Positions 47,369 through 60,989 of a stretch of DNA of 64,000 bases are shown one piece after another. The DNA is from Streptomyces griseus. GTDB lineage: Bacteria > Actinomycetota > Actinomycetes > Streptomycetales > Streptomycetaceae. A program made the position numbers and the translations under genes. Each line of letters opens with the position of its first letter. Position 1 is the first letter of the stretch. The stretch spans positions 430,217 through 494,216 of the forward strand of contig NZ_MDKB01000001.1 in NCBI RefSeq assembly GCF_001715295.1, written 5' to 3'. The notes under the pieces were generated by a model. It did not search any database. It saw only the letters and a program-made list of their open reading frames with translations, and had not been told where the DNA came from.

Positions 47369-47767
47369 CTACGCCCGCGGCCGCACCGTACGAGGTCCCG
47401 TGCAGCGGGCCCCGAGCGCCTCGACCCGCCGGCGCAGTTCACGGTCGGCCGTGACCACGAGGCAGTCCCGGTCCGCTCCGGCCCCTGGAGCGTGGGCCGC
47501 GGCCAGTTCGACGATCAGGTCGTCACCCGAGCCCGGCGCCGCCTCCACCCGCACACCCGGTACGGATCCGACGCCCCGCGCGGCGCCCTCGACGACCATG
47601 ACCACCTCGAGCGGCCCGGTGAGTCCGGGGAGCCCGGCCGCGGCGTACGGGACCAGCGAGTCCCGCAGCCGCTCGGCGGCACCTCGCCGGTCCCGCCACC
47701 ACTGGTCCGGCACCGACCCGACGACGTTCGCGGCATCGACGATCAGCAGTGTCTTCCCGGTCCGCAT
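47369..47767 (-). CDS. NYN-domain (PIN-like) putative ribonuclease
   Basis: 132 residues. The acidic-site pattern of NYN/PIN nucleases is visible: LLIVDAANVVG near the start, then SGDDLIVELA and CLVVTADRELRRRV. Such domains cleave RNA with metal ions. It starts 17 bp after the LCP gene stop on the same strand, so probable operon. Cellular target unknown. Confidence 0.85.
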   Translation of the reverse strand: MRTGKTLLIVDAANVVGSVPDQWWRDRRGAAERLRDSLVPYAAAGLPGLTGPLEVVMVVEGAARGVGSVPGVRVEAAPGSGDDLIVELAAAHAPGAGADRDCLVVTADRELRRRVEALGARCTGPRTVRPRA

Positions 47768-47784
47768 CTCAGCAGGATGACAGG

Positions 47785-48846
47785 TCAGCCGCCGGTGGCC
47801 GGCGACTTCTTCGCCGACTCGGGAATCGTGGCGTCCGTCCGGATCGCCTTCCAGAGATCGCCGGCCTGCGGCTCGGCCGCCACCACCCGGTTCGGGTCCG
47901 TCCTGTCGTAGGCGACGGGCAGCATGAGCGTCTCCATGGTGGAGGGGTCGACGCCGTTCATCGAGCGGGCGAAGTCGCTGAGCGAGGTGAGGGAGGCGAG
48001 CCCCTCGTCCGTGGTGAGCGACTTGGTGGCGGAGTTGGCGATCTTGTACGTGGTCGCCGGACTGCCCAGCAGGTCCTGGGACTTGATCTCGGTGAGCAGC
48101 GCGAGCAGGAACTGCTGCTGGAGCCCGATCCGGCCCAGGTCGCTGCCGTCCCCGATGCCGTGCCGGGTACGGACGTAGGCGAGGGACTCGGTGCCGTTCA
48201 GCTTGTGCGTGCCGGCGGAGAGGTCGAGCCCCGAGGCCTTGTCCTTGATCGGCTCGTCGACCTTGACGGTGACGCCGCCTATGGCGTCGACCAGATCCTT
48301 GAACCCGGCGAAGTTGATCTCCAGGTAGTGGTCGATCCGGACCCCCGACATCTTCTCGACCGTCTTCACCACACAGGCGGGACCGACCTGGGAGTAGACG
48401 GAGTTGAACATGACCCGCTCGGCCGAGGCCATCGTCGAGCCGTCGGACGTGACGCACTCCGGCCGGGTCACCAGGGTGTCGCGCGGGATGGACACGGCGA
48501 CGGCCTCGGTGCGGCCCTCGGGTATGTGCACCACCAGCGCGGTGTCGGACCGTGCCCCGCTGACGTCGCCGCCTCCGCCGAGTTCCTTGTTCTCGGCCCC
48601 GGCCCGTGAGTCGGAGCCGAGGACGAGCAGGTTCTGACCGGTGGTGGGGAGCTTCTCGGGGCGGTCCTCGCCGAGCGCCTTGTCGATGTCGACGCCCTTG
48701 ATGTTGCCGTCGAGGTCCTGGTACATCCAGTACGCGGTGCCGCCGCCGGCCAGCAGGAGGACGAGCAGTACCCCCAGCGCGATCTTGAGGCCGCGGCGCT
48801 TGCGCGGCTTGGGCGCGCGTCGGGAGGGAGTGCTGTCGTGGCTCAT
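47785..48846 (-). CDS. LytR-CpsA-Psr family cell-wall glycopolymer transferase
   Basis: 353 residues: basic cytosolic start, one membrane helix (about 21-43), then the extracellular LCP domain with LLVLGSDSRAG, SDTALVVHI, SIPRDTLV and the conserved DLVDAIGGV and RTRH regions. LCP enzymes transfer lipid-linked glycopolymers onto peptidoglycan. A good -10 (TATAGT) lies upstream. It is divergent from an epimerase gene that opens the glycan cluster, so it may attach that polymer. Confidence 0.93.
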   Translation of the reverse strand: MSHDSTPSRRAPKPRKRRGLKIALGVLLVLLLAGGGTAYWMYQDLDGNIKGVDIDKALGEDRPEKLPTTGQNLLVLGSDSRAGAENKELGGGGDVSGARSDTALVVHIPEGRTEAVAVSIPRDTLVTRPECVTSDGSTMASAERVMFNSVYSQVGPACVVKTVEKMSGVRIDHYLEINFAGFKDLVDAIGGVTVKVDEPIKDKASGLDLSAGTHKLNGTESLAYVRTRHGIGDGSDLGRIGLQQQFLLALLTEIKSQDLLGSPATTYKIANSATKSLTTDEGLASLTSLSDFARSMNGVDPSTMETLMLPVAYDRTDPNRVVAAEPQAGDLWKAIRTDATIPESAKKSPATGG

Positions 48847-48946
48847 CGTGCGTGAGTCCTCAATCTCGTTGCCCGGGGCGGGCAGGGGAGTGCGTGGGAC
48901 TCGGGTGGGGGGCGTGACCGGTCCGTAAAACGTCGACTGACCGAGC

Positions 48947-48952
48947 ACTATA
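48947..48952 (-). promoter_or_regulatory. -10 element of the LCP gene
   Basis: TATAGT on the minus strand about 100 bp before the ATG, in an AT-richer patch. The -35 is not clear. Confidence 0.45.
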
Positions 48953-49023
48953 GAACAGACATCCGCTCGAACGTGTGAGTCCGGTGAACAGATGCCCGGT
49001 GATGCGTGGAACGTGTGCCGATC

Positions 49024-49029
49024 TACTAT
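49024..49029 (+). promoter_or_regulatory. -10 element suggesting a leaderless epimerase transcript
   Basis: TACTAT ends 7 bp before the ATG at 49037, the spacing expected if transcription starts at the start codon. No ribosome site is present, which agrees. Confidence 0.5.
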
Positions 49030-49036
49030 TTCGCGC

Positions 49037-50041
49037 ATGACTTGGTTGATCACAGGTGGGGCGGGCTTCATCGGGGCGCACGTCGTCCGCGCGATGGCGG
49101 AGGCCGGCGAGCGGGTCGCGGTGTACGACGATCTTTCGACGGGTGACCGTTCCCGTGTCCCCGCGGGCGTTCCGTTCGTGCACGGGTCGACGCTCGACGG
49201 GGACGGCCTGCGACGCGCCATGACGGAACTCTCCGTGCGAGGGATCGTGCACCTCGCGGCGAAGAAGCAGGTGGGGGAGTCCGTGGAACGTCCTCTGTAC
49301 TACTACCGCGAGAACCTGCACGGTCTTCAGGTCCTGCTGGGCGCGGCCGCGGACAGCGGGGTCCGTGCCTTCCTCTTCTCCTCGTCCGCTGCGGTCTACG
49401 GCATGCCCGACGTGGCGCTGGTGACGGAGGACACGCCCTGCGCCCCGATCAATCCGTACGGCGAGACGAAACTCGCCGGCGAGTGGCTGGTCCGCGCGGC
49501 GGGAAGGGCGCACGGAATGGCGACCGCTTCGATGCGGTACTTCAACGTGGCCGGCGCGGCGACCCCGGAGCTGGCCGACACCGGCGTCTCCAACCTCGTT
49601 CCGATGGTCTTCGAGAAGCTCACGCAGGGGAAGGCCCCGGTGATCTTCGGGGAGGACTACGACACCCCGGACGGCACCTGCGTACGGGACTTCATCCACG
49701 TCGAGGACATCGCTTCGGCGCACCTCGCTGCGGCGCGTGCCCTGCTCGTCCGGGAGGCCGGCACGGACCTGACCCTCAACATCGGGCGGGGTGAGGGCGT
49801 GTCGGTGCGCGAGATGATCGACCTCATCGGTGAGGTGACCGGGTACGGCGCCGATGCCGCGCCCGTCTCCGTCGCGCGCAGGCCCGGTGATCCGCACCGG
49901 GTGGTCGCCTCGGCGGCACGTATCCGGGCCGAGCTCGGGTGGTCGGCCCGCCGCGATCCGCGGGACATGGTGACCTCCGCGTGGGAGGGCTGGTGTCTGC
50001 ACCACCCGACGGCACGACGGGGACCACGCCGGTCCGCCTGA
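49037..50041 (+). CDS. galE: NAD-dependent UDP-sugar epimerase (GalE-like)
   Basis: 334 residues. NAD-binding motif TGGAGFIGAHV at residues 5-15, catalytic Tyr-Lys in NPYGETKLA, and SSSAAVYG. It interconverts UDP-glucose and UDP-galactose or a related pair. The start was set at the ATG beginning MTWLITGG; upstream codons are not GalE-like. It heads the Stealth glycan cluster and is divergent from the LCP gene, so it probably supplies a sugar nucleotide for the polymer rather than serving galactose catabolism. Confidence 0.9.
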   Translation: MTWLITGGAGFIGAHVVRAMAEAGERVAVYDDLSTGDRSRVPAGVPFVHGSTLDGDGLRRAMTELSVRGIVHLAAKKQVGESVERPLYYYRENLHGLQVLLGAAADSGVRAFLFSSSAAVYGMPDVALVTEDTPCAPINPYGETKLAGEWLVRAAGRAHGMATASMRYFNVAGAATPELADTGVSNLVPMVFEKLTQGKAPVIFGEDYDTPDGTCVRDFIHVEDIASAHLAAARALLVREAGTDLTLNIGRGEGVSVREMIDLIGEVTGYGADAAPVSVARRPGDPHRVVASAARIRAELGWSARRDPRDMVTSAWEGWCLHHPTARRGPRRSA

Positions 50042-50186
50042 GCCGACCGCAGTGAACGACACGTGAAGCTTGTGGCACACTTTCCCCTCGTCGAGTCGCC
50101 GGTCACCCGATGACGCGGAGTCGGCCTGGTGCCGCGGAGCGGTGGCCGCACCGGGCGGCGGCGCACGGAAGAGACGAAGGAACCTG

Positions 50187-51296
50187 ATGCGAACGAGGGC
50201 GGGGCGAGGTGCTGCGCGGGCGGACGCCTCCACGTCCGCCGGGCGCGCGGGTGAGCCGTTCCGTCCCGTCGGCGAGCACGGGGTGCGGCTCTTCATGGGC
50301 AAGGACGACCGGCTGACCGCGTTCGCCCGCGCGGAAGGCGGCCTCGTGCGCTGGACGCAACGCCGGGCCGGGGCGGCGGACTGGGGCGAGCCCGAGTTGT
50401 TGCCCGCTCCTCGCCTGACCCACCTGTCGATAACCCAGGGAGCCGACGGGTTCGTGCACTTCGTGGGCAGGCGGGTGTCGGCCGACGGCGATTCCGTGGC
50501 GGTCGTGCAGGCCGTCCAGTACCAGACGGGCCGCCCTCTCACCCAGTGGCACACGATAGGCAATCCGCACAAGGACCCGGAGCGGGCCCGTGCGGTGACC
50601 GGTCCCGGTGGAGCGGTGAGTGCCACGGGGCGTCTTCACGTCTTCCTGGCCAGGGCCGACGGCGGTGTGATGATGCGGCAGGAAGCGGCCAACGGCCGGT
50701 GGCCTGCGTGGAAGGGCCTGAAAGGACAGCTGGCGCAGGAAGGCGCGGTGGCCGTTGCGTCGGCCTCCGGCCGGATCGAACTGCTGGTCCCCGACACCGT
50801 CGGCCGCACGATGCGCTGGCGGCAGTCCGAGCCGGACGGTGAGCCGGAGCGCTGCCCCAACATCCACATCGCGCCGGCGCCGGGCACGCTGACCGGGATC
50901 GAGACGGCGGCCGAACGCTTCACCTACTACTGGGCCGACGCCGCCACCGGGGGCGTCTTCGCGCATCGACCCGGCAGCTGGGTCATCCCCCTCGGCGGAG
51001 GCCCGGTCAGCGGGCGCATCCAGGCGCTGCGTATGGCGCTCGACGGCTACGACTGCACGGTGCTGGCCCACCGAAGTACCGACGGCGACGTGATGCTGGC
51101 GGCGTGCGCGACGGAGAACGAGTCCGCGGGTCTCTGGTGGGCACCGACCGGTGAACGGTGTGTGGGGCCACCGGCTCTCATCCGTGACGTGTACGGGCGC
51201 CTGCTGATCGCCGTTCTCGGGGAGGAAGGCGAGCTGCGCGTCGCCGAGCAGACCCCGGCGTCGGGCCTGGTCATGGGGCCCGCGGTGCGCGTCTGA
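50187..51296 (+). CDS. Beta-propeller-like protein of unknown function
   Basis: 369 residues, ATG with GAAGGAA upstream. Repeating blocks of about 45-50 residues of the type GRLHVFLARADGG and GVRLFMGKDDRLTAF, with recurring Trp, suggest a lectin- or sialidase-like propeller. No signal peptide or membrane helix is evident; an Arg/Ala-rich start precedes the first blade. It lies between the epimerase and the first Stealth gene, so a glycan-recognition role is possible. No known family could be named. Confidence 0.6.
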   Translation: MRTRAGRGAARADASTSAGRAGEPFRPVGEHGVRLFMGKDDRLTAFARAEGGLVRWTQRRAGAADWGEPELLPAPRLTHLSITQGADGFVHFVGRRVSADGDSVAVVQAVQYQTGRPLTQWHTIGNPHKDPERARAVTGPGGAVSATGRLHVFLARADGGVMMRQEAANGRWPAWKGLKGQLAQEGAVAVASASGRIELLVPDTVGRTMRWRQSEPDGEPERCPNIHIAPAPGTLTGIETAAERFTYYWADAATGGVFAHRPGSWVIPLGGGPVSGRIQALRMALDGYDCTVLAHRSTDGDVMLAACATENESAGLWWAPTGERCVGPPALIRDVYGRLLIAVLGEEGELRVAEQTPASGLVMGPAVRV

Positions 51297-51368
51297 CCAG
51301 CAGCTTCGCGACACGTACGGTTCTCACCGGCGGCATGGCCCGCCGATTGCATGTATGTAACGGATAAG

Positions 51369-51405
51369 TTGATCCATCGATCAAAGATGGACATTGAATG
51401 TTCAA
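51369..51405. promoter_or_regulatory. Two AT-rich inverted repeats before the Stealth operon
   Basis: TTGATCCATCGATCAA (arms TTGATC/GATCAA) and TTGAATGTTCAA (arms TTGAA/TTCAA) lie 9 bp apart in a 245-bp gap of unusually low GC. They may be operator sites for the three overlapping genes that follow. The start region of the first gene has no strong ribosome site. Confidence 0.4.
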
Positions 51406-51541
51406 GGTGTGAATATTCTGTGGCGCCTACCTGTCTCCGGTGATGGGGTCGTGGAGCAGGGTCTGCTCTACGGATGACGGCGCGGGACCGGGCTCAATTG
51501 CCCCCTGGGTGTATGGATGGTGCGGTAATTCTGTGGCCGGC

Positions 51542-53332
51542 GTGAGTAATCCTGAGACCAGTGCGCTCGTTTCCACCTACCGGTCGCTCGTTCCCGTCCG
51601 GGCGCGACGCCGCATCGTCAGCCGGGTGCCGGTCCCGCTGCGCAACCTGGTCATGCACCTCCTGGCCACCTTCGACTCCGCCCGCTCCGCGGTGGTCGTG
51701 AGGGCTCTGGGCGGCCGGCGCAACCCGGCCCGGCACAGCCTGGACGCTTCCCTGCGCGTGGTCCGCATCGAGGGCAAGCACGTCCGGGCGGCCGTGGTCA
51801 GAGGTGCCACCGAGTGGGCGGCACGGGCGCGGAACCTGCACATGGTGGTCGCCATCCTGGAGGACGCGGAGATCGCGTACTTCGCGGTCCGCGGTACCGG
51901 CAAGGACATTCCGTGTGTCGCCGTGTCGTCGCGGCACCGCGGCGATGTCGAGGAGATCCTGCAGATCGCCTTCGGGCGCAACCCCGGCTACGTCCGTGAC
52001 GTCTCGGGCGGGCAGTTGCGGCCGGGTGCGTCGGCGAAGACCTGGAACAAGCTCAGGTCGAGCAAGGTCCTCCGGCTGACCTGGAACGTCTGCGACCCGA
52101 CCGGGGGACTGGTCTTCGGTCCGGAATCCGGCTGTGACCTGGAGTTCTGGGCGGAGAAGGACGGTGAGCTGGTGGCTCCCCGGCCCAACGCCGTGGTCAC
52201 GGAACTGCCCGCGGATCCGGAGTTCCGCGTCGTGGAGCAGAGGGTGTTCAGCACGGTCCCCGATCCGTACCACACCGGCTACGTCCGCACGGTCTCCGAG
52301 TTCACGGCCCGGCTCCCCGGTGACCACAGGTACCCGATCGACGTCGTCTACACATGGGTCGACGACGCGGATCCGGTCTGGCGCGCGGGCAAGGACGCCG
52401 TCCGCCGCTCCCTCACGCCCGACACGACGGAACGACTGCACGAGCAGGCCGACAACGACGCCCGGTACACCAGCAGGGACGAGCTCAGGTTCTCCCTGCG
52501 CTCCATCCACCAGTACGCGCCGTGGGTGCGGAACATCTACCTGGTGACGGCGGGTCAGGCTCCCGGCTGGCTGAACTCCGAGCACCCGGGCCTGCGTGTC
52601 GTCGACCACCGCGAGATATTCTCCGACCCCCACGCGCTGCCGACGTTCAACTCCCACGCGATAGAGAGCCAGTTGCACCACATAGGTGACCTGGCGGAAC
52701 ACTTCCTCTACCTCAACGACGACGTCTTCTTCGGCAGGCCGGTCGGCCCCGGCCACTTCTTCCACCCCAACGGTCTGACGAAGTTCTTCACGTCGAAGGC
52801 CCTCATCCCGTCCGGGCAGATCACCCCGGACGACCTGCCGGTCAACGCCGCCGGGAAGAACAGCCGGGGGCTCATCGCCCAGCAGTTCGGCACCGTCATC
52901 TCCCAGAAGATGAAGCACACGCCCCACGCGCTCAGCCGTTCCGTGCTCGCCGAGATCGAGCAGACCTACGAGCGGGCCCACTGGGTGACCCAGCACTCCC
53001 GGTTCCGCTCACCGCACGACATCCCCATCGCGTCCTCGCTCCACCACTACTACGCGTACCACCAGGCCCGTGCGACCCTCGGCAACCTTCGGTACGTGTA
53101 CGTCGACATCGGTGACGCGCTGGCCCAGCGGAGACTGGACCGACTGGTCGCCCGGCGTGACTTCGACACCTTCTGCATCAACGACACCATCGTCCCGGCC
53201 GACCCGGACGCGCAGGAGCGCATGGTGAAACGCTTCCTCAACGACTACTTCCCCGTCCCGAGCCCCTACGAGCTCCCCGGAGCCGAAGGCATGCCGACGC
53301 GGCGCACCGCAGAACTGGGAGCAGGCCGATGA
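51542..53332 (+). CDS. Stealth-family phosphotransferase
   Basis: 596 residues from GTG (uncertain; frame open to 51440). An N-terminal domain (about 70-160) resembles the leading region of other Stealth proteins. The four conserved regions follow: CR1 PIDVVYTWVDDADPVW (about 265-280), CR2 SRDELRFSLRSIHQYAPW through HFLYLNDDVFF (about 315-425), CR3 around MKHTPHALSRS, CR4 DTFCINDTI. Stealth enzymes transfer hexose-1-phosphate from a sugar nucleotide to make phosphodiester-linked glycans. Probably cytosolic or membrane-associated. Its stop overlaps the next start (ATGA). Confidence 0.92.
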   Translation: MSNPETSALVSTYRSLVPVRARRRIVSRVPVPLRNLVMHLLATFDSARSAVVVRALGGRRNPARHSLDASLRVVRIEGKHVRAAVVRGATEWAARARNLHMVVAILEDAEIAYFAVRGTGKDIPCVAVSSRHRGDVEEILQIAFGRNPGYVRDVSGGQLRPGASAKTWNKLRSSKVLRLTWNVCDPTGGLVFGPESGCDLEFWAEKDGELVAPRPNAVVTELPADPEFRVVEQRVFSTVPDPYHTGYVRTVSEFTARLPGDHRYPIDVVYTWVDDADPVWRAGKDAVRRSLTPDTTERLHEQADNDARYTSRDELRFSLRSIHQYAPWVRNIYLVTAGQAPGWLNSEHPGLRVVDHREIFSDPHALPTFNSHAIESQLHHIGDLAEHFLYLNDDVFFGRPVGPGHFFHPNGLTKFFTSKALIPSGQITPDDLPVNAAGKNSRGLIAQQFGTVISQKMKHTPHALSRSVLAEIEQTYERAHWVTQHSRFRSPHDIPIASSLHHYYAYHQARATLGNLRYVYVDIGDALAQRRLDRLVARRDFDTFCINDTIVPADPDAQERMVKRFLNDYFPVPSPYELPGAEGMPTRRTAELGAGR

Positions 53333-54285
53333 TGCCCCGCCGAAGGCACCTCGCCGCCGTACGCCGCCGGCTGGCCGCGCGCGTGTTCCCGCTCCGCGCC
53401 TGGCTCATGCGACGCCTCTTCGTGCCCCTGCGCTCCCGCAGCGCGGCACGTCTCGTCTACGCGGCGGTGCTCGACGGCCAGACGGTGAACCTGCACGCCG
53501 TACTCCCGGAGGCCGCGCGCCTCCCCGAGGAGGCCGAACTGCTCATCAGGCGCGGACGGCGCCGGTACGGGAGTCCGGCACGCGTGTACGAGGACCGGGA
53601 GGGCCGCCTCCTCATGGACGCCGCGGTCCTGCTGGGTGCGGAGGCCGGCGGCGTACCCGTGGACGACGGGCGCTGGAAGGTCGTGCTGACCACCCGGACG
53701 GGGCGTAAGCAGAGCCGTTTCCCGCTGCTTCTCCTCGAGCCGCCGAAGCCGTACGGCGGACCCACCATGCCCATGTCCGTCTCGCCGGTCAGCGGCAGAC
53801 GGTACCGGCTGGGGCGCACGCTCACCGGCCACCTCCGGGTGGTCAGTTCCCGGGCCCGGCCGTCCGCCGAGGTGGTGAAGGTGAAGCTCTTCCACACGGG
53901 GCTCACCGTCGACTTCCGGGTCCTCGGGACCGAAGCCGTCGAGCCGTGGACCGAGTTCATCGCCTCCGGCCGCAGGATCCAGCAGCCCGTCACAGAAGTC
54001 GGTGACGGGATGTGGCGCACGGTCGTCCCGCTGGAACAGATGACGCCGGAGCGCAGGGCGACCGAGCACTGGGACGTCACCTTCTGCGCGTCCGGCATCC
54101 GCAGCATGCGCCTCGGACGACGTCTGCACGACGTCCGTAATCCGCTCCGGGTATTCGCCATGACGCAGGCGAGTGTGGCCCCGAAAGGCCGGAACCCCCT
54201 CCTGGTGCACCCGCGCTACACACCCGCGGGCAACTTCCGCGTGACGTGCAGCCGTATGCCCGAAGCCGGGCGGAGCGGGACATGA
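53329..54285 (+). CDS. Uncharacterised protein between two Stealth genes
   Basis: 318 residues, basic N-terminus (RRRHLAAVRRRLAAR), then beta-rich sequence without a signal peptide or recognised motif. It overlaps both neighbours by 4 bp (ATGA at each end), so it is translated in step with the two Stealth proteins and is likely part of the same machinery. Two adjacent ATGs (53329 and 53332) could start it. No family recognised. Confidence 0.75.
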   Translation: MMPRRRHLAAVRRRLAARVFPLRAWLMRRLFVPLRSRSAARLVYAAVLDGQTVNLHAVLPEAARLPEEAELLIRRGRRRYGSPARVYEDREGRLLMDAAVLLGAEAGGVPVDDGRWKVVLTTRTGRKQSRFPLLLLEPPKPYGGPTMPMSVSPVSGRRYRLGRTLTGHLRVVSSRARPSAEVVKVKLFHTGLTVDFRVLGTEAVEPWTEFIASGRRIQQPVTEVGDGMWRTVVPLEQMTPERRATEHWDVTFCASGIRSMRLGRRLHDVRNPLRVFAMTQASVAPKGRNPLLVHPRYTPAGNFRVTCSRMPEAGRSGT

Positions 54286-57155
54286 AGATCACCTTTCTGC
54301 TGACCACCGCCGACGCCGTGGGCGGCACGGAGCGGGCGGTGTTCAACCAGGCGGCGGAACTCGCCGAGCGTCACGACGTCCGGGTCCTGAGTGTCTTCAA
54401 GAGCAAGGCCGAACTCTTCTTCTCACCCGACGAACGCGTCCGGGTGGACTACCTCGTCGACATGACCGGACCCGTCCAGCGCCCGCTGCGCAGAGCGGAT
54501 CTCGCGGATTCCGTGTACGCGGCGCTGGCGGCGCAGCCGAGCAGCCTGGTCGACCGTGCCTGGGAAGCGGCCTTCAACAGACTGTCCGACGTCGAACTCG
54601 GCCTCGCACTGGAGGACACCGACACCGACATCCTCGTCACCACCACCCCGGCGCTCATGGCCCTGGCCGTGCAGTTGGCGCCCGCCGCGGTGATCACCGT
54701 GCACCAGGAACACCGGGTCTCGGAACTGCGCGGCACGAGCGGAGAGCCACTTCTGCGGTACTCGGCACGCCTTGACGCCCTGGCGGTGCTCAGCGAGCGC
54801 ACCCGGGACTGGTTCGCCGAAACCCTCGGAGCGGCCGCTCCGCGTATCGAGGTGGTACCCAACGCCCTGCCGGCCGGTTTCCGGCCCCGCTCGACGCTGG
54901 AGACGAGGACCGTCGTGACAGCCGGCCGGCTGGTGGGCGAGAAGCAGCTCGACCACGCCCTGGAAGCGTGGGCACTGCTCGCACCCCACCACCCCGGCTG
55001 GACCCTGAAGATCTTCGGGGACGGCCCCATGAGCGGGGCGCTGCGACGGCAGACAGCTCAACTGGGACTGCAGGACTGTGTCCAGCTGAACGGGAACTCG
55101 CCTCATCTCGCGGAGGAGTGGGCCAAGGCCAGCATCGCGTTGATGACCTCGAAGAACGAGGCGTTCCCCCTCGTCCTCATGGAGGCCCAGGCGGCCGGCG
55201 TACCCGTGGTGTCCTACGACTGCCCCAACGGTCCCAGCGAGATCATTCTCGACGGGCAGTCGGGTGTCCTGGTGCCGCCGGGCGACGTGGAGGCGCTTGC
55301 GGGGCGGCTGCACCAGCTCATGACGGACGGCCCGTTGCGCCACCGGATGGGCGCCGCGGCGGCGGACTCGATCACCAGGTTCGCACCGCCCCTGGTCACC
55401 GCGCGCTGGGAAACCTTCTTCCAGGGCCTGGTGGACGAGCGGGAGAACGGCGGCCGGGCCGCGGCGAAGGCCGACCGGTCGGCGCTGCACGCCGCCTACA
55501 GCGGTCCGGACGGTGCCGTGGCGGCGGCCGCGCCCGCCCCGCCGAGCCAGGACCGTTCCCGCGCACACCGGCAGCTGGAACAGCAGGTCGCCAAGGGCAG
55601 GCCCGAATTGGTGAAGGACGGCGGACAGTTGTGCCGCGTCACCGATGCGGAGTCGCCGTTCGACATCGTGCAGGCCAACCTCGCCCTCGCCGCGACGGCG
55701 CTCGAGGCGGCGGACGTCCCTTACCTCGTCGTGAGGGACACCATGGTCCGGCAGACCGTGGCGGTGCACGGCTCGTACCGCGAGACGGTACTCAAATCCC
55801 TGGCCGGCCGGTACCGGCACGAAGGCGTCTACGCCGGTCTCCTCAACGACCGCCAGAACCCGGTCACCACCGTTCTCGCGGGGCTGCTCGGGGAGTACAC
55901 CGACCAGCCGTGCTCGGGTGTCCGGATCTACCAGAACGTGGTGTCGACCTCGCGCACGCTGCGCCTGGGGGCGGTGTACGGCTGCACGATCTCCTTCTGG
56001 GACAACGACCCCGAGGAGAGCGACATCCTTGTGTCGCCCACCCGCACCCTGATCGGTGACCGGATCTCCCAGCACTCCATGCGTCAGACGTCGACCGTGC
56101 TCTCCGGGCGTACGTACCCGACCATCGCTCCGTTCGCGAACGCCCTCCACGGAGACGTGGGGTTCCCCGTGGACGCCGTCTACACCTGGGTCGACGGCTC
56201 GGACGTCGAGTGGCTCGAACGGAAGAACCAGGTGCTCTCGTACCTGGGCCTGGAGACCGTGGACGCGGCGGCCAGCGCCGCCCGGTTCCGTAGCCGGGAC
56301 GAGCTCCGCTACTCGCTCCGGTCCATCGACATGTACGCGCCGTGGATCCGGAACATCTACATCGTGACGGACCGGCAGGTGCCTTCCTGGCTGGACCAGT
56401 CGCACCACCGGGTACGCGTGGTGGACCACACCGAGATCTTCGGCGACCAGGGTGCGCTTCCCACGTTCAACTCGCACGCCATCGAGAGCCGGCTGCATCA
56501 CATCGACGGGCTCGCCGAGCACTTTCTCTACTTCAACGACGATTTCTTCATCGGCCGTACCGTACTGCCGAGTCTCTTCTTCCTGGGCAACGGTCAGGCG
56601 AAGCACTTCCTGTCGCCGACCGCAGTGCCCATGCTGCCCCCGCTGGCAACCGACGACTTCAACATCAGTGCCGCGAAGAACAACCGCGAACTGATCGCCT
56701 CCAGCTTCGGCCAGACACTCACGCATTCCTTCCTGCACGCGCCGTACGTGCTCCGCAGGAGTGTCATGGAGGATCTCGAACGCGCCTATCCGCAGCAGGT
56801 CGCCCAGACCTCCGCGAGCAGGTTGCGCAGCCACAGTGATGTGTCCATCGCGTCCTCGCTCCACCACTACTTCGCCTTCCACACCGGCAGAGGGGTGCCC
56901 GGATCCATCTCGTGCGGCTTCGTCAACGTCGGCCTCAGTGAGCACCGGACCCGTCTGAACCGCCTGCTGACCAGTCGCCCCAACGACGTCTTCTGCCTCA
57001 ACGACTTCCACGACGGTGACGTGCCCGAGGAGGAACAGGACGCGATCCTCGCGGCGTTCCTCCCCAGTTACTTCCCTGTGGCCAGTCAGTTCGAGTACGG
57101 CGCGCCGCGTAACCAGCGTTACCACGGCGGCCTACTTCCGGAGTGGCCGCTCTAG
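54282..57155 (+). CDS. GT4 glycosyltransferase-Stealth fusion protein
   Basis: 957 residues. Residues 1-385 form a GT4 glycosyltransferase (VGGTERAVFNQAAELAERH at the start; AGRLVGEKQLDHALEAW; the donor-site block FPLVLMEAQAAGVPVV). A Pro/Ala linker (about 390-430) leads to a Stealth N-terminal domain and CR1 (DAVYTWVDGSDVEW, near 630), CR2 (SRDELRYSLRSIDMYAPW through HFLYFNDDFFIG), CR3 and CR4 (NDVFCLNDFH). One chain may add a sugar and a sugar-1-phosphate alternately. It overlaps the preceding gene by 4 bp. The stop codon lies within the end of a mobile repeat. Confidence 0.93.
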   Translation: MKITFLLTTADAVGGTERAVFNQAAELAERHDVRVLSVFKSKAELFFSPDERVRVDYLVDMTGPVQRPLRRADLADSVYAALAAQPSSLVDRAWEAAFNRLSDVELGLALEDTDTDILVTTTPALMALAVQLAPAAVITVHQEHRVSELRGTSGEPLLRYSARLDALAVLSERTRDWFAETLGAAAPRIEVVPNALPAGFRPRSTLETRTVVTAGRLVGEKQLDHALEAWALLAPHHPGWTLKIFGDGPMSGALRRQTAQLGLQDCVQLNGNSPHLAEEWAKASIALMTSKNEAFPLVLMEAQAAGVPVVSYDCPNGPSEIILDGQSGVLVPPGDVEALAGRLHQLMTDGPLRHRMGAAAADSITRFAPPLVTARWETFFQGLVDERENGGRAAAKADRSALHAAYSGPDGAVAAAAPAPPSQDRSRAHRQLEQQVAKGRPELVKDGGQLCRVTDAESPFDIVQANLALAATALEAADVPYLVVRDTMVRQTVAVHGSYRETVLKSLAGRYRHEGVYAGLLNDRQNPVTTVLAGLLGEYTDQPCSGVRIYQNVVSTSRTLRLGAVYGCTISFWDNDPEESDILVSPTRTLIGDRISQHSMRQTSTVLSGRTYPTIAPFANALHGDVGFPVDAVYTWVDGSDVEWLERKNQVLSYLGLETVDAAASAARFRSRDELRYSLRSIDMYAPWIRNIYIVTDRQVPSWLDQSHHRVRVVDHTEIFGDQGALPTFNSHAIESRLHHIDGLAEHFLYFNDDFFIGRTVLPSLFFLGNGQAKHFLSPTAVPMLPPLATDDFNISAAKNNRELIASSFGQTLTHSFLHAPYVLRRSVMEDLERAYPQQVAQTSASRLRSHSDVSIASSLHHYFAFHTGRGVPGSISCGFVNVGLSEHRTRLNRLLTSRPNDVFCLNDFHDGDVPEEEQDAILAAFLPSYFPVASQFEYGAPRNQRYHGGLLPEWPL

Positions 57156-57322
57156 TGCCGCAACAGGCCACGTTCGCCCCGTCGCGACGCCCGGCACGCA
57201 CTCTCGCCGCACCGGCCGAAAGCCCAAGTACGTCCAGTACAAGGACTTCCGGCCGGCACGCCGAGAGCACGCACCCGACGCCGCTCCTTGACGGGCAAAC
57301 GTTGCCTGCCGCGGCACTAGAG
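57151..57322. mobile_element. 172-bp near-palindromic MITE-like element
   Basis: The ends CTCTAGTGCCGC and GCGGCACTAGAG are perfect inverses, and similarity of the two arms continues almost to the middle, so the whole element folds on itself. CTAG at both borders may be the target duplication. The TAG stop of the GT4-Stealth gene is provided by the left end. It is non-coding. A CTAGTGCCG end also borders the IS5 debris at 7878. Confidence 0.75.
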
Positions 57323-57372
57323 AAGAGCGGTACCCGACCGGAAGGCGAAGGGTGACGGGCGAGGAGAGGTAC

Positions 57373-58764
57373 ATGAGCAAGTTCTGCATCATCGGCAATT
57401 CGGTGGCCGCATCACGGAAAGCCGAGGAGCGCCCGCTGGCCGGCTGGGGGGAGTTTCTGGGCGACTTCCTGACGCCGTACTTCGAGGTGCGCAACTACGC
57501 GCGCGACGCGATGACGGCCCGTGCCTACTACACGGACCGTTTTATCTCGCTGCTGAATCTGCTGAGCCCCGGAGACGTCGTCGCCATCGATTTCGGCGGG
57601 GTCGAACAGCGCATCGACAATCCGGTCCGCTACCACGGGTACCGTGAGTTCAGGGAGTTCCTGTACCTGTACCTCGCCGCTGTTCAGCAGGAGGGAGCGA
57701 TCCCGCTCCTCATGACCCCGGTCGCGCGTTGCGTCTTCGAGCCCGACGGTTCGGTGGCGGACACCCGCGACGGCTACCCGCAGCTGATCCGGGAGGTGGC
57801 GGCCGAGACCGGTACACCGCTCGTGGACCTCAATCAGCTCACCACGGGGATGCTTCAGGAGCTGGGACCGCAGCGTGCGAGGCAGTTCTACCGATGGGTC
57901 GACGCGGGTGAGCATCCGCATCATCCCGACGGTCTCATCGACGCCTCGCACTTCAACGAGGCGGGTGCCCGCGAGGTCGCGAGACTCGTCGCGATCGGCC
58001 TGGACAACGCGGTCGGTCTCCCGTTCGGGATGGTCGACCGGGCGGCCGTGTCCGTCCCCTCCGCGTACCCGCCGTTCTCTTCCGAGTTCACCGTCGAGGC
58101 CCCGGAATACGCGCTGCACAGCGAGGCACGCGTGGGCTCCGCCCCTGTGTTCGCCGGCCCGCGCAACGGACAGGTCGTGAGCGGCCTGCAGAAGTTCTCC
58201 GGCACGGTGGATCCCGGGACCTCGTACATCCTGTTCTTCGAGCGCGGTGCGTACGTCGGAGGTGCCCACGTGGGCGCCGGGGGCAAGTGGATCTGGCGAA
58301 GAGCCTTCAGGTGGGCGGCGGGAGAGTGGTCGGTCCACGCGGTCGGTCTCACCGAGCACGGGGTGTCTCCGGTGGGGGGTGTGGACTTCACCGTCGTCGA
58401 GACCGTCGAGCCCCCCGTGGTCCTGGGCCCGCGGGAGGGGAAACTGAGCGGACCCCGGCCCCGCTTCTCCGGTACCGCCATGCGGGGCGCCTCCCATGTG
58501 GCGATCATGGAGAACGAACGGTTGATCGCGAGCGCCCCGGTCCAGGAGGACGGCACGTGGAAGGTCGCGCACGCGCACGACTGGAAGCCCGGAACACACC
58601 TCCTGGAGTTCGTCACCGTCTTCAGCGCCCTCCACTCCGCGCCGACCCGGCACACGCTGCGCGTGCACGGCATTCCCGAAGGCAACTGGATCAGGGAATC
58701 GACGACGTCCAGGGAGCCGTGCGCCGACCCGTGCGAGCACCTTCCGTTCGCCGGCCGGTGGTAG
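57373..58764 (+). CDS. SGNH/GDSL hydrolase with C-terminal Ig-like domains
   Basis: 463 residues from ATG at 57373, placed after GGAGAGG. The serine block is IGNSVAAS (S10) in place of GDS, and the His/Asp block is IDASHFNEAG (about D190, H193). The fold resembles CE12-type acetylesterases. Two Ig-like repeats follow (about 245-330 and 340-445; KFSGTVDPGTSY and RFSGTAMRGASH). No signal peptide, so it probably works inside the cell, perhaps setting the acetylation of the polymer. It is separated from the Stealth operon by the mobile repeat and followed by a strong terminator. Confidence 0.85.
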   Translation: MSKFCIIGNSVAASRKAEERPLAGWGEFLGDFLTPYFEVRNYARDAMTARAYYTDRFISLLNLLSPGDVVAIDFGGVEQRIDNPVRYHGYREFREFLYLYLAAVQQEGAIPLLMTPVARCVFEPDGSVADTRDGYPQLIREVAAETGTPLVDLNQLTTGMLQELGPQRARQFYRWVDAGEHPHHPDGLIDASHFNEAGAREVARLVAIGLDNAVGLPFGMVDRAAVSVPSAYPPFSSEFTVEAPEYALHSEARVGSAPVFAGPRNGQVVSGLQKFSGTVDPGTSYILFFERGAYVGGAHVGAGGKWIWRRAFRWAAGEWSVHAVGLTEHGVSPVGGVDFTVVETVEPPVVLGPREGKLSGPRPRFSGTAMRGASHVAIMENERLIASAPVQEDGTWKVAHAHDWKPGTHLLEFVTVFSALHSAPTRHTLRVHGIPEGNWIRESTTSREPCADPCEHLPFAGRW

Positions 58765-58792
58765 CGGCGTCCCCGCGGGTGTACTGCACGCG

Positions 58793-58830
58793 CTCGGGCC
58801 GCACAGGGGAGAGACCCTGTGCGGCCCGAG
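58793..58830. terminator. Bidirectional terminator between glycan cluster and fadB
   Basis: Perfect 16-bp arms CTCGGGCCGCACAGGG and CCCTGTGCGGCCCGAG with a GAGAGA loop, between convergent genes. Confidence 0.92.
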
Positions 58831-58856
58831 TGTCGTCCGTCCGGCCGGAGTGAGTG

Positions 58857-60989
58857 TTACGCCGGAACGCTCGCCACGCCCGGCTCCAGGAACCGCTTGC
58901 CGTTGACGCGCTCCGAGACACCCTCGCGGTCCAGGTACGGCGTGATGCCGCCCAGATGGAAGGGCCAGCCCGCGCCGGTGATCAGGCAGAGGTCGATGTC
59001 CTGGGCCTCGGCGACGACGCCCTCGTCCAGCATCAGGCCGATCTCCTGCGCCACCGCGTCCAGCACGCGCTCGCGGACCTGGTCCTCGGTCAGGACGGTG
59101 TCGCCCTGCTCGAGGAGGGCGGCGACCTCCGGGTCCAGCTCCGGCCTACCGGAGTCGTAGACGTAGAAGCCGCGCTTGCCGGCCTTGACCACGGCGGCGA
59201 GGTTCCCGGACACCGTGAAGCGGTCGGGGAACGCCCGGTTCAGCGTCTCCGAGACGTGCAGGCCGATGGCCGGGCCGACCAGCTCCAGGAGCACCAGCGG
59301 GGACATCGGCAGCCCGAGGGGCTCGATGGCCTTCTCGGCCGTCGCCACGGGGGTGCCCTCGTCGATGATGTTCTGGATCTCGCCCATGAAGCGGGTCAGG
59401 ATGCGGTTGACGACGAACGCCGGGGCGTCCTTCACCAGCACCGCGGTCTTCTTCAGCTTGCGGGCGACGCCGAAGGCCGTGGCCAGCGAGGCGTCGTCGG
59501 TCTGCTCGCCGCGCACGATCTCCAGGAGGGGCAGGACCGCGACCGGGTTGAAGAAGTGGAAGCCGACGACCCGCTCGGGGTTCTTCAGCTTCGACGCCAT
59601 CTCGGTGACCGAGAGGGACGAGGTGTTCGTGGCGAGGATCGCGTGCGCCGGGGCGACCGCCTCGACCTCCGCGAACACCTGCTGCTTGACGCCGATCTCC
59701 TCGAAGACGGCCTCGATGACGAAGTCGGCGTCGGAGAAGCCCTCCGCCTTGTCCAGCACCCCGGAGACCAGGCCCTTGAGGCGGTTGGCCTTGTCCTGGT
59801 TGATGCGGCCCTTGCCGAGCAGCTTCTCGATCTCGGCGTGGACGTAGCCCACACCCTTGTCGACGCGCTCCTGGTCGATGTCCGTGAGGACGACCGGGAC
59901 CTCGAGGCGGCGCAGGAACAGCAGGGCGAGCTGGCTGGCCATCAGGCCCGCGCCCACCACGCCGACCTTGGTGACCGGGCGCGCCAGCGCCTTGTCCGGT
60001 GCGCCGGCCGGGCGCTTGGCGCGCTTCTGGACCAGGTTGAAGGAGTAGATCCCCGCACGCAGTTCGCCACCCATGATCAGGTCCGCGAGGGCCTGGTCCT
60101 CGGCGTCGAAGCCGGCGCTCAGGTCGCCGCCCTTGGCCGCGGCGATGATCTCCAGCGCGCGGTACGCGGCCGGGGCGGCGCCGTGCACCTTGGAGTCGGC
60201 GACGGCCTTGCCGCGGGCCACGGCCTGGTCCCAGGCGTCACCCCGGTCGACCTCGGGACGCTCGACGGCGATCTCGCCCTTGAGGACGGCCGCCGTCCAG
60301 ATCAGCGACTGCTCCAGGAAGTCCGCACCCTCGAAGAGCGCGTCGGCGATGCCGAGCTCGAAGACCTGCTTGCCCTTGAGCTGGCGGTTCTGGTTGAGCG
60401 AGTTCTCGATGATCACCGTGACGGCGCGGTCGGCGCCGATCAGGTTGGGCAGCAGCGCGCAGCCGCCCCAGCCGGGGACCAGGCCGAGGAAGACCTCGGG
60501 CAGCGAGAAAGCGGGGACCGCCGCGGAGACGGTGCGGTACGAGCAGTGCAGGCCGACCTCGACACCGCCGCCCATCGCCGCACCGTTGTAGTACGCGAAG
60601 GTCGGTACCGCCAGGCCGGACAGGCGGCGGAAGACGTCGTGCCCGCCCTTCCCGATGGCCAGCGCGTCCTTGTGGTCCTTGAGGAGCTCGACGCCCTTGA
60701 GGTCGGCGCCGACCGCGAAGATGAACGGCTTGCCGGTGATGCCGACACCGGTGACCGCGCCCTCGGCGGCCTCCTTCTCGACCTGGTCGATCGCGGCGTT
60801 CAGGTTCGCCAGCGACTGCGGTCCGAAGGTGGTCGGCTTGGTGTGGTCCAGGCCGTTGTCCAGCGTGATCAGGGCGAACCTGCCGGCGCCCGCCGGAAGG
60901 TCGAGGTGGCGTACGTGGGCCTGCGTGACGACCTCGCCGGGGAACAGCGCGGCCGCCCCCTTCAGGAGGTCGGTGGTGGCGGTGCTCAC
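58857..60989 (-). CDS. fadB: Fatty-acid oxidation multifunctional protein FadB
   Basis: 710 residues from GTG overlapping the fadA stop by 4 nt; the frame happens to stay open to 63995 but that is chance. N-terminal enoyl-CoA hydratase domain (about 15-300; YYNGAAMGGGVEVGLHCSYR and LPEVFLGLVPGWGG), then NAD-binding 3-hydroxyacyl-CoA dehydrogenase (GVVGAGLMASQLA, near 340; FHFFNPVAVLPLLEIV). It performs hydration and oxidation steps of beta-oxidation, with FadA finishing the cycle. Confidence 0.96.
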   Translation of the reverse strand: MSTATTDLLKGAAALFPGEVVTQAHVRHLDLPAGAGRFALITLDNGLDHTKPTTFGPQSLANLNAAIDQVEKEAAEGAVTGVGITGKPFIFAVGADLKGVELLKDHKDALAIGKGGHDVFRRLSGLAVPTFAYYNGAAMGGGVEVGLHCSYRTVSAAVPAFSLPEVFLGLVPGWGGCALLPNLIGADRAVTVIIENSLNQNRQLKGKQVFELGIADALFEGADFLEQSLIWTAAVLKGEIAVERPEVDRGDAWDQAVARGKAVADSKVHGAAPAAYRALEIIAAAKGGDLSAGFDAEDQALADLIMGGELRAGIYSFNLVQKRAKRPAGAPDKALARPVTKVGVVGAGLMASQLALLFLRRLEVPVVLTDIDQERVDKGVGYVHAEIEKLLGKGRINQDKANRLKGLVSGVLDKAEGFSDADFVIEAVFEEIGVKQQVFAEVEAVAPAHAILATNTSSLSVTEMASKLKNPERVVGFHFFNPVAVLPLLEIVRGEQTDDASLATAFGVARKLKKTAVLVKDAPAFVVNRILTRFMGEIQNIIDEGTPVATAEKAIEPLGLPMSPLVLLELVGPAIGLHVSETLNRAFPDRFTVSGNLAAVVKAGKRGFYVYDSGRPELDPEVAALLEQGDTVLTEDQVRERVLDAVAQEIGLMLDEGVVAEAQDIDLCLITGAGWPFHLGGITPYLDREGVSERVNGKRFLEPGVASVPA

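What the first reader, a model, noticed from the sequence alone, without database searches (positions are those of the whole stretch)
48847..58764. Surface-glycan locus with two Stealth enzymes, GalE-like epimerase, propeller protein, SGNH esterase and a divergent LCP enzyme
The Stealth motifs CR1-CR4 are visible in both proteins, and ATGA overlaps tie Stealth, unknown protein and GT4-Stealth into one unit. Known family roles (hexose-1-phosphate transfer, epimerisation, attachment to peptidoglycan) imply a phosphodiester-linked wall or capsule polymer. Such a polymer with this gene set is not one I recognise as described in Streptomyces. Polymer identity is inference.
Basis: partly seen in the sequence, partly recalled or inferred. 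Interest (0 to 1): 0.72.

Follow-up and report, generated by a model that had tools for sequence, protein, structure and literature searches.

The report
Swappable wall-polymer gene set in Streptomyces
This stretch of a Streptomyces chromosome holds one of at least six different sugar-polymer gene sets that occupy the same site in closely related species; this set is predicted to build a sugar-phosphate polymer for the cell surface, so the site likely works like the capsule-type loci of other bacteria.

Summary
In detail: two Stealth proteins with CR1-CR4 and the CpsY catalytic residues, two ATGA overlaps, a GalE, a PLL-like propeller, an SGNH protein and a divergently read LCP gene. Two results go beyond it. 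(1) The site between the LCP gene and fadB is hypervariable: 71 sites compared hold this Stealth/GT4-Stealth set, GT2-TagF, CDP-alcohol/GT2-GT2-TagF, TarIJ/TagF, multi-Stealth/GT4 or (once) polysialyltransferase-like sets, or none, and relatives 98-99% identical in fadB hold different sets. The flank tree needs at least 34 label changes. The LCP gene is at 22 of 22 complete sites with a set, 5 of 26 without; corrected for relatedness this is inconclusive. (2) The unknown 318-aa protein is a detached relative of the C-terminal domain of sister-set GT4 enzymes (profile match 99.0%; controls at most 16.3%), and 63 of 63 named relatives lie directly upstream of a GT4-Stealth gene. I predict a poly(glycosyl phosphate).

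The parts
47785..48846 (-). LCP-family (LytR-CpsA-Psr) glycopolymer transferase gene, conserved edge of the variable site, with one N-terminal membrane segment
   Evidence: PF03816 160.5 bits, TIGR00350, hydropathy, synteny
49037..50041 (+). GalE, UDP-glucose 4-epimerase; present in only some copies of this allele
   Evidence: TIGR01179 over cut-off; GalE seen in 2 of 11 sites with this allele (window, L034) and in 7 of 34 named LCP-site loci (L114-L117, L124, L139, L144); the two sets of loci overlap in part
50187..51296 (+). PLL-like beta-propeller protein, 369 aa, no signal found
51533..53332 (+). Stealth-1, stand-alone Stealth phosphotransferase (start uncertain; longest frame from 51440)
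53329..54285 (+). u318: 318-aa protein homologous to the C-terminal domain of sister-set GT4 enzymes; basic N-terminus
54282..57155 (+). GT4-Stealth fusion, 957 aa: GT4 (about residues 13-361), linker and Stealth N-region, Stealth CR1-CR4 (residues 628-947)
57373..58764 (+). SGNH/GDSL-fold protein with weak Ig-like C-terminal match, YxiM-like, no signal found
58857..60989 (-). fadB-like gene, conserved other edge of the variable site
   Evidence: synteny

Best explanation
The window holds one allele of a chromosomal site, between an LCP gene and fadB, that carries different glycopolymer gene sets in close relatives, and this allele is predicted to make a poly(glycosyl phosphate) that the neighbouring LCP enzyme likely attaches to peptidoglycan. 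Predicted route: UDP-Gal (or UDP-GalNAc) from GalE and UDP-GlcNAc-type donors are used in the cytoplasm, at the membrane, by a GT4-Stealth polymerase; its retaining GT4 half would add an alpha-linked sugar and its Stealth half would add a sugar-1-phosphate, giving alternating glycosidic and phosphodiester bonds. u318 would be the acceptor-binding or assembly domain that sister GT4 enzymes carry at their C-terminus, here supplied as a separate, translationally coupled protein. Stealth-1 would add a second sugar-phosphate or start the chain. The SGNH and propeller proteins would edit or hold the chain inside the cell. An ABC exporter and the lipid starter must come from elsewhere in the genome. 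Shown: homology, catalytic residues, gene overlap, co-conservation, allele exchange. Inferred: donors, linkage, roles of u318, SGNH and propeller, export, wall attachment.
For: Stealth parts: best solved match is CpsY 8j2n (E 2e-70 and 2.6e-71), whose GlcNAc-1-phosphotransferase activity and residues E305, N322, D324, R419 are reported (passages); all are present in both proteins. GT4 part: EX7E motif at 293 and GR-x4-K at 215 (motif meaning recalled). Architecture precedent: TagF-like/GT-B polymerases make alpha-linked phosphate polymers (passages). u318: 63 of 63 named loci have GT4-Stealth directly downstream, 61 of 63 also a Stealth-1 relative in the locus; 27 of 28 u318-bearing Streptomyces genomes have Stealth against 81 of 199 overall (p 3e-11 without correction for relatedness). 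u318 profile against 11 sister GT4 C-termini: 99.0%, E 2e-18; reversed, 8 shuffled and 11 other-family controls 0.0-16.3%. Off site, one copy lies in a cluster with two GT2-TagF enzymes, GalE and an ABC pair resembling TagH and a glycan-export permease, below the equivalog cut-offs (L158). LCP: 22 of 22 complete sites with a set, 5 of 26 without. Allele exchange.
Against: No chemistry or expression data. No exporter or priming enzyme in the set. The LCP-set association is not significant once relatedness is taken into account (3 pairs for, 0 against, 5 no difference, p 0.25), and one incomplete site (L101) has TagF-like sequence without an LCP gene in view. The nine labels need fewer changes than shuffled ones (34 against 43.6), so sets are partly inherited, not freely exchanged. 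In S. coelicolor ten LCP proteins other than PdtA, SCO6020 among them, gave no severe phenotype (review passages). S. griseus carries this allele (L114), yet the S. griseus wall study reports polyol phosphate and a teichuronic-like polymer in the passages I saw; the strain may differ. Propeller genes persist at sites without a set, so their link to the polymer is weak.
Confidence: 0.6

Rival explanations
1. This allele is the biosynthesis locus of the known polymer PDP, [->6)-alpha-Gal-(1->6)-alpha-GlcNAc-1-P], with GT4 adding alpha-Gal and Stealth adding GlcNAc-1-P.
For: The domain logic (retaining GT4, Stealth, GalE) matches the PDP repeat (structure). By gene numbers the same site in S. coelicolor, a PDP maker, would lie between the LCP gene SCO6020 and the ribonuclease gene SCO6028, and 'Exopolysaccharide phosphotransferase SCO6023' is in use as an annotation label, seen in a Cronobacter table.
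Against: PDP attachment depends on PdtA (SCO2578), which is elsewhere, and not on the other LCP proteins. No S. coelicolor locus was returned when u318 was sought in named genomes (a pattern-based scan, one genome per species), so its set is probably another one; its sequence was not inspected. This set was found in only 11 of 199 Streptomyces genomes at this site.
Confidence: 0.15
2. The set makes a capsule-like or free extracellular phosphoglycan, or a side chain on wall teichoic acid, and the LCP gene only happens to be a stable neighbour.
For: 29 of 63 named loci with the trio have no LCP gene of this type (over 60% identity) in the fetched stretch, up to 10 kb each side; 7 of these 29 have TagF or TarIJ genes there (L156, L158, L159, L164, L169, L170, L176). 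A teichuronic-like polymer attached to wall teichoic acid is known in S. griseus (passages). Stealth enzymes elsewhere make capsules.
Against: The LCP gene is missing from 21 of 26 complete sites without a set and present at all 22 with one.
Confidence: 0.25
3. The proteins glycosylate a protein or small molecule rather than build a polymer.
For: The GT4 half is nearest, among solved chains, to group-1 glycosyltransferases 7ec7/7ec1 and to Gtf1; NCBIfam puts SdgA and SdgB, protein O-glycosyltransferases, first, far below their cut-offs.
Against: Sister sets at the same site hold TagF/TarIJ teichoic-acid enzymes; TarM, an enzyme that glycosylates a wall polymer, is in the same list.
Confidence: 0.06

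Closest known systems
Stealth sugar-1-phosphotransferases (CpsY 8j2n, GNPTAB)
   Same: CR1-CR4 and reported catalytic residues present in both proteins
   Different: One copy is fused behind a GT4 domain; a 2018 paper states that Stealth polymerases were believed to be single-domain (PMC5974469, passage)
TagF-like/GT-B capsule polymerases Cps7D, Cps3D
   Same: A GT-B glycosyltransferase and a phosphotransferase in one chain; weak sequence match of the GT half to Cps3D 8qoy, E 2.6e-5
   Different: Phosphotransferase half is Stealth, not TagF; partner protein u318; Gram-positive chromosomal site with LCP
S. griseus Utr teichuronic-acid locus (PMC13274773)
   Same: Streptomyces wall polymer genes that vary between species (passages)
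   Different: That locus is anchored at ribosomal protein genes L21/L27 and the text has no mention of Stealth, LytR or fadB; this one is between an LCP gene and fadB
Poly(diglycosyl phosphate) PDP with ligase PdtA, S. coelicolor
   Same: Glycosyl-phosphate wall polymer in the genus
   Different: PdtA is at another site; its polymerase genes are not named in the passages read
Pneumococcal cps locus (recalled, not tested)
   Same: Conserved flanks and a conserved LCP gene beside exchangeable polymer genes
   Different: Here the exchangeable part centres on phosphotransferase polymerases; no flippase or Wzy-type polymerase was named in the scanned set proteins; sites may be empty

Membership tests
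Stealth family | CR1-CR4 in order, over curated cut-offs | tested here: met
   both proteins
Stealth family | Residues equivalent to CpsY E305, N322, D324, R419 | tested here: met
Stealth family | Sugar-1-phosphate transfer from a UDP-sugar | not testable with these tools
   needs enzyme assay
GT4 glycosyltransferases | Glycos_transf_1 domain and EX7E motif | tested here: met
GalE | TIGR01179 equivalog score over cut-off | tested here: met
   303.7 against 262.3 bits
LCP ligases | LytR_cpsA_psr domain and membrane anchor | tested here: met
LCP ligases | Attaches this polymer to peptidoglycan | not testable with these tools
   association only; relatedness-corrected test inconclusive
PDP biosynthesis locus | Makes Gal-GlcNAc-phosphate repeat | not testable with these tools
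   no chemistry
PDP biosynthesis locus | Attached by PdtA | tested here: inconclusive
   neighbouring LCP gene corresponds by position and gene numbers to SCO6020, not SCO2578; orthology by sequence was not checked
Exchangeable glycopolymer (cps-like) locus | Conserved flanks with different gene sets in close relatives | tested here: met
Exchangeable glycopolymer (cps-like) locus | Different sets give different surface polymers | not testable with these tools
   needs wall analysis
SGNH esterases/acetyltransferases | Catalytic Ser block and D-x-x-H | tested here: met
   GNS at residues 8-10, DASH at 190-193; that these are the catalytic blocks is inferred from position and recalled motifs; substrate unknown

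The most novel reading that the evidence does not exclude
Streptomyces has a genus-wide, cps-like surface-type locus: between an LCP ligase gene and fadB, species exchange whole polymerase sets (Stealth, TagF, GT4, GT2, polysialyltransferase-like) while keeping the ligase, so that relatives nearly identical in core genes wear chemically different wall polymers, as escape from phages or from lectin-guided toxins; in this allele the polymer is made by a GT4-Stealth polymerase with a new, detachable GT4 accessory protein.
Probability: 0.45. Interest if true: 0.8.

Novelty: new variant of a known kind. Interest (0 to 1): 0.62.

Why it matters
Streptomyces wall polymers are poorly known, and a 2025 study reports that such a polymer is the receptor that decides which species a lectin-guided toxin can reach (PMC13274773, passages). 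A second, independent site where close relatives swap polymer genes would be a natural place to look for receptor variation against phages and such toxins, and gives genes to test. The GT4-Stealth plus u318 trio also offers an enzyme candidate for phosphodiester-linked glycans, and a context for a domain that has no Pfam or NCBIfam match.

Tried and rejected
Reading the locus as a fixed Streptomyces operon: rejected, Stealth is in 81 of 199 genomes and u318 in 28 of 199. Reading it as the PDP locus: kept as a rival only. Whether u318 resembles other local families: ten (Stealth N-region, propeller, SGNH whole and its Ig part, LCP, TagF N-part, p508 and u376 propeller-type proteins, GT4 core, CDP-alcohol transferase) gave 0.1-1.7%, the TarS C-part 16.3%, so a TarS-like fold is a weak hint only. 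One profile match, in L071, fell inside the GT4 domain and is taken as chance. u318 against solved structures: one row, E 0.64, taken as no match. PHROGs gave nothing for the propeller and u318. Promoter and terminator scan: no more than chance. A first leader scan used a threshold (2.0) that misses a Tat-like leader; it was repeated with 1.5 and a positive comparison. Paper searches for SCO6020-6025, Stealth with Streptomyces and glycopolymer, SCO2589-2594 and Stealth names, 'exopolysaccharide phosphotransferase' with Streptomyces, and teichoic/LCP/locus terms listed no paper whose title or abstract start describes this locus; of these I opened only some, for passages; the library lacks most subscription journals. 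Sigle 2016 and Sperisen 2005 were not held; statements on PdtA come from the review. That S. coelicolor has several Stealth genes at SCO6021-6023, and which polymer they make, is recall except where cited.

Full report
What is in the window. The region 47785-60989 is, in order, an LCP gene (-), GalE, a propeller protein, Stealth-1, the 318-aa protein (u318), GT4-Stealth, an SGNH protein (all +) and fadB (-), followed by a thiolase and an RNase D-like gene; upstream are an amino-acid permease-like gene and dxs (thiolase, RNase D, permease and dxs named by eye from the translations). Both Stealth proteins have all four conserved regions. The two ATGA overlaps are real, and the 4-base Stealth-1/u318 overlap recurs at L034, L037, L038, L039, L041 and L043 in the gene lists.

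Enzymes. Stealth-1 and the Stealth half of GT4-Stealth are closest among solved structures to the Mycobacterium protein CpsY. A paper on CpsY, of which I read passages, reports activity with UDP-GlcNAc and effects of E305, N322, D324 and R419; the aligned residues are present in both proteins. The GT4 half has the EX7E motif and its best solved matches are group-1 glycosyltransferases such as 7ec7, Gtf1 and TarM. The GT-B/TagF capsule polymerases are the architectural precedent: there the GT-B half makes alpha-linkages and the TagF half the phosphodiester (passages).

u318. The homologues with an organism name among the 120 listed (of 125 hits) are from Streptomyces, Actinacidiphila or Kitasatospora. 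In 199 Streptomyces genomes u318 is found in 28 and Stealth in 81; 27 of the 28 have both (p 3e-11 ignoring relatedness); the exception, G100, is a partial match with a stop. Conversely, of the 30 short Stealth loci fetched the 11 that show the GT4 part all come from u318-bearing genomes. Eleven of the 28 carry the close form (52% identity or more), and all eleven have it beside the LCP gene (fadB out of view in one, L039). In a separate scan of named genomes 63 loci were returned, and in 63 of 63 GT4-Stealth lies directly downstream on the same strand (within 1.5 kb; in L176 the u318 match was too weak for my cut and the locus position was used); a Stealth-1 relative is upstream on the same strand in 39, on the opposite strand in the locus in 22 and not seen in 2; 34 of 63 have the LCP gene in the locus. 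A profile of u318 matched the C-terminal part of six stand-alone GT4 enzymes, five of them in sister sets (L055, L056, L058, L065, L066) and one off site (L048), E 2e-13 to 4e-7. Profile-profile comparison with 11 such C-termini gave 99.0% and E 2e-18 over 198 columns, against 0.3% for the reversed alignment, at most 0.1% for eight column shuffles, at most 1.7% for ten other local families and 16.3% for the TarS C-part. In the class, 27 of 296 genomes have a match; in another family (code f17) 13 genomes match, in 8 of which the best match lies in a frame of 813-947 aa; the three of these that I scanned have GT4 at the N-terminus, while shorter stand-alone frames also occur. So u318 is most likely a GT4 accessory domain set free as its own gene.

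The site. I took the RNase D-like gene as an anchor (192 of 199 genomes match, 190 of them once) and fetched 60 regions, to which 10 regions with this allele and the window were added. By gene content the 71 sites fall into: this allele 11, GT2-TagF 6, CDP-alcohol transferase with GT2-GT2-TagF 8, TarIJ with TagF 7, two or more Stealth genes with GT4 9, polysialyltransferase-like with GT2 1, a further TagF-like 1, LCP gene only 6, neither 22 (domains of example proteins). The 60 were hand-picked, so these are not frequencies. Pairs with 98-99% identical fadB hold different sets, for example L062/L064, L064/L065, L054/L058. On a quick tree of fadB plus RNase D (70 rows) the nine labels need at least 34 changes where 8 is the least possible; shuffled labels give 43.6, so the labels are partly clustered by descent. 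This allele alone needs 7 changes, of which 6 are forced by well supported branches. The LCP protein follows fadB (r 0.73 over 946 pairs) with a small excess similarity between sites of the same set (0.015, 9 in 1000 permutations). Two sites look like remains of lost sets: L075 with GT2 fragments and L057 with a u318-like fragment.

LCP and set. Of 48 sites whose both edges were in view, 22 of 22 with a polymerase set have the LCP gene and 5 of 26 without a set have it (Fisher p 3e-9). That test ignores relatedness; on the tree (58 rows, starred branches), independent pairs give 3 for, 0 against and 5 without difference (p 0.25). Of the 12 incomplete sites, 6 show set and LCP, 4 a set with no LCP in view (L063, L072, L101, L110), 1 LCP alone, 1 neither.

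Location of the other proteins. A simple hydropathy scan finds a membrane segment in the LCP protein and, among the allele's own proteins, only a borderline peak inside the GT4 fold. A leader (17 residues, over 1.5) is seen before or at the start of 2 of 89 propeller-like and 1 of 20 SGNH-like matches, against 6 of 7 for the u376 propellers of the TarIJ/TagF set. The ABC pair next to an off-site copy in S. niger L158 resembles TagH and a glycan-export permease, below the equivalog cut-offs and cut by the locus end; it shows the kind of exporter that would be needed. In this genome five TagF-like domains lie together on another contig and there are nine LCP-domain matches.

Known polymers. Streptomyces walls are reported to carry teichulosonic acid and, as a minor part, PDP, the latter attached by PdtA (passages). 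By gene numbers the site would be the S. coelicolor interval SCO6020 (LCP) to SCO6028 (ribonuclease); 'Exopolysaccharide phosphotransferase SCO6023' appears as an annotation label in a Cronobacter table. The S. coelicolor sequence itself was not inspected, and whether its set makes PDP is open. The polymorphic S. griseus teichuronic locus is at a different place.

Verdict. Real, well conserved as a trio, and best read as one allele of an exchangeable glycopolymer locus. I put allele exchange at about 0.9, polymerase of a glycosyl-phosphate polymer at about 0.75, and wall attachment by the neighbouring LCP at about 0.6; these are judgements, and the best explanation as a whole is given 0.6.

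Noticed in passing
window 51297-51532: A+T-rich spacer before Stealth-1 with the only promoter-like match in 47700-59000; not above chance.
   Followed up: partly
L057:5065-5370 and L075: Fragments of a u318-like domain and of a GT2 gene at sites otherwise holding only the LCP gene (and a propeller in L057), as if a set had decayed.
   Followed up: partly
L096:5503-8216: Polysialyltransferase-like gene (PF07388) with a GT2 gene at the same LCP-fadB site.
   Followed up: no
L079:5750-6805: Protein with a phage-type 5-bladed propeller receptor-binding domain match (PF21311) and a Tat-like N-terminus (by eye) in a TarIJ/TagF set.
   Followed up: no
L077, L081, L083, L095, L098, L109 and others: A propeller gene stays at sites that have neither LCP nor a polymer set; its role is unexplained.
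   Followed up: no
G000:C10:1215674-1232089: Five TagF-like domains in one cluster: a separate, likely teichoic-acid locus of the same genome.
   Followed up: no
G000:C9:1045175-1045444: Weak u318-profile match (E 5e-5) inside a 1064-aa frame elsewhere in the genome.
   Followed up: no
L164 and L158: Off-site copies of the trio sit among teichoic-acid genes; L164 also lies near an RNase E/G gene.
   Followed up: partly
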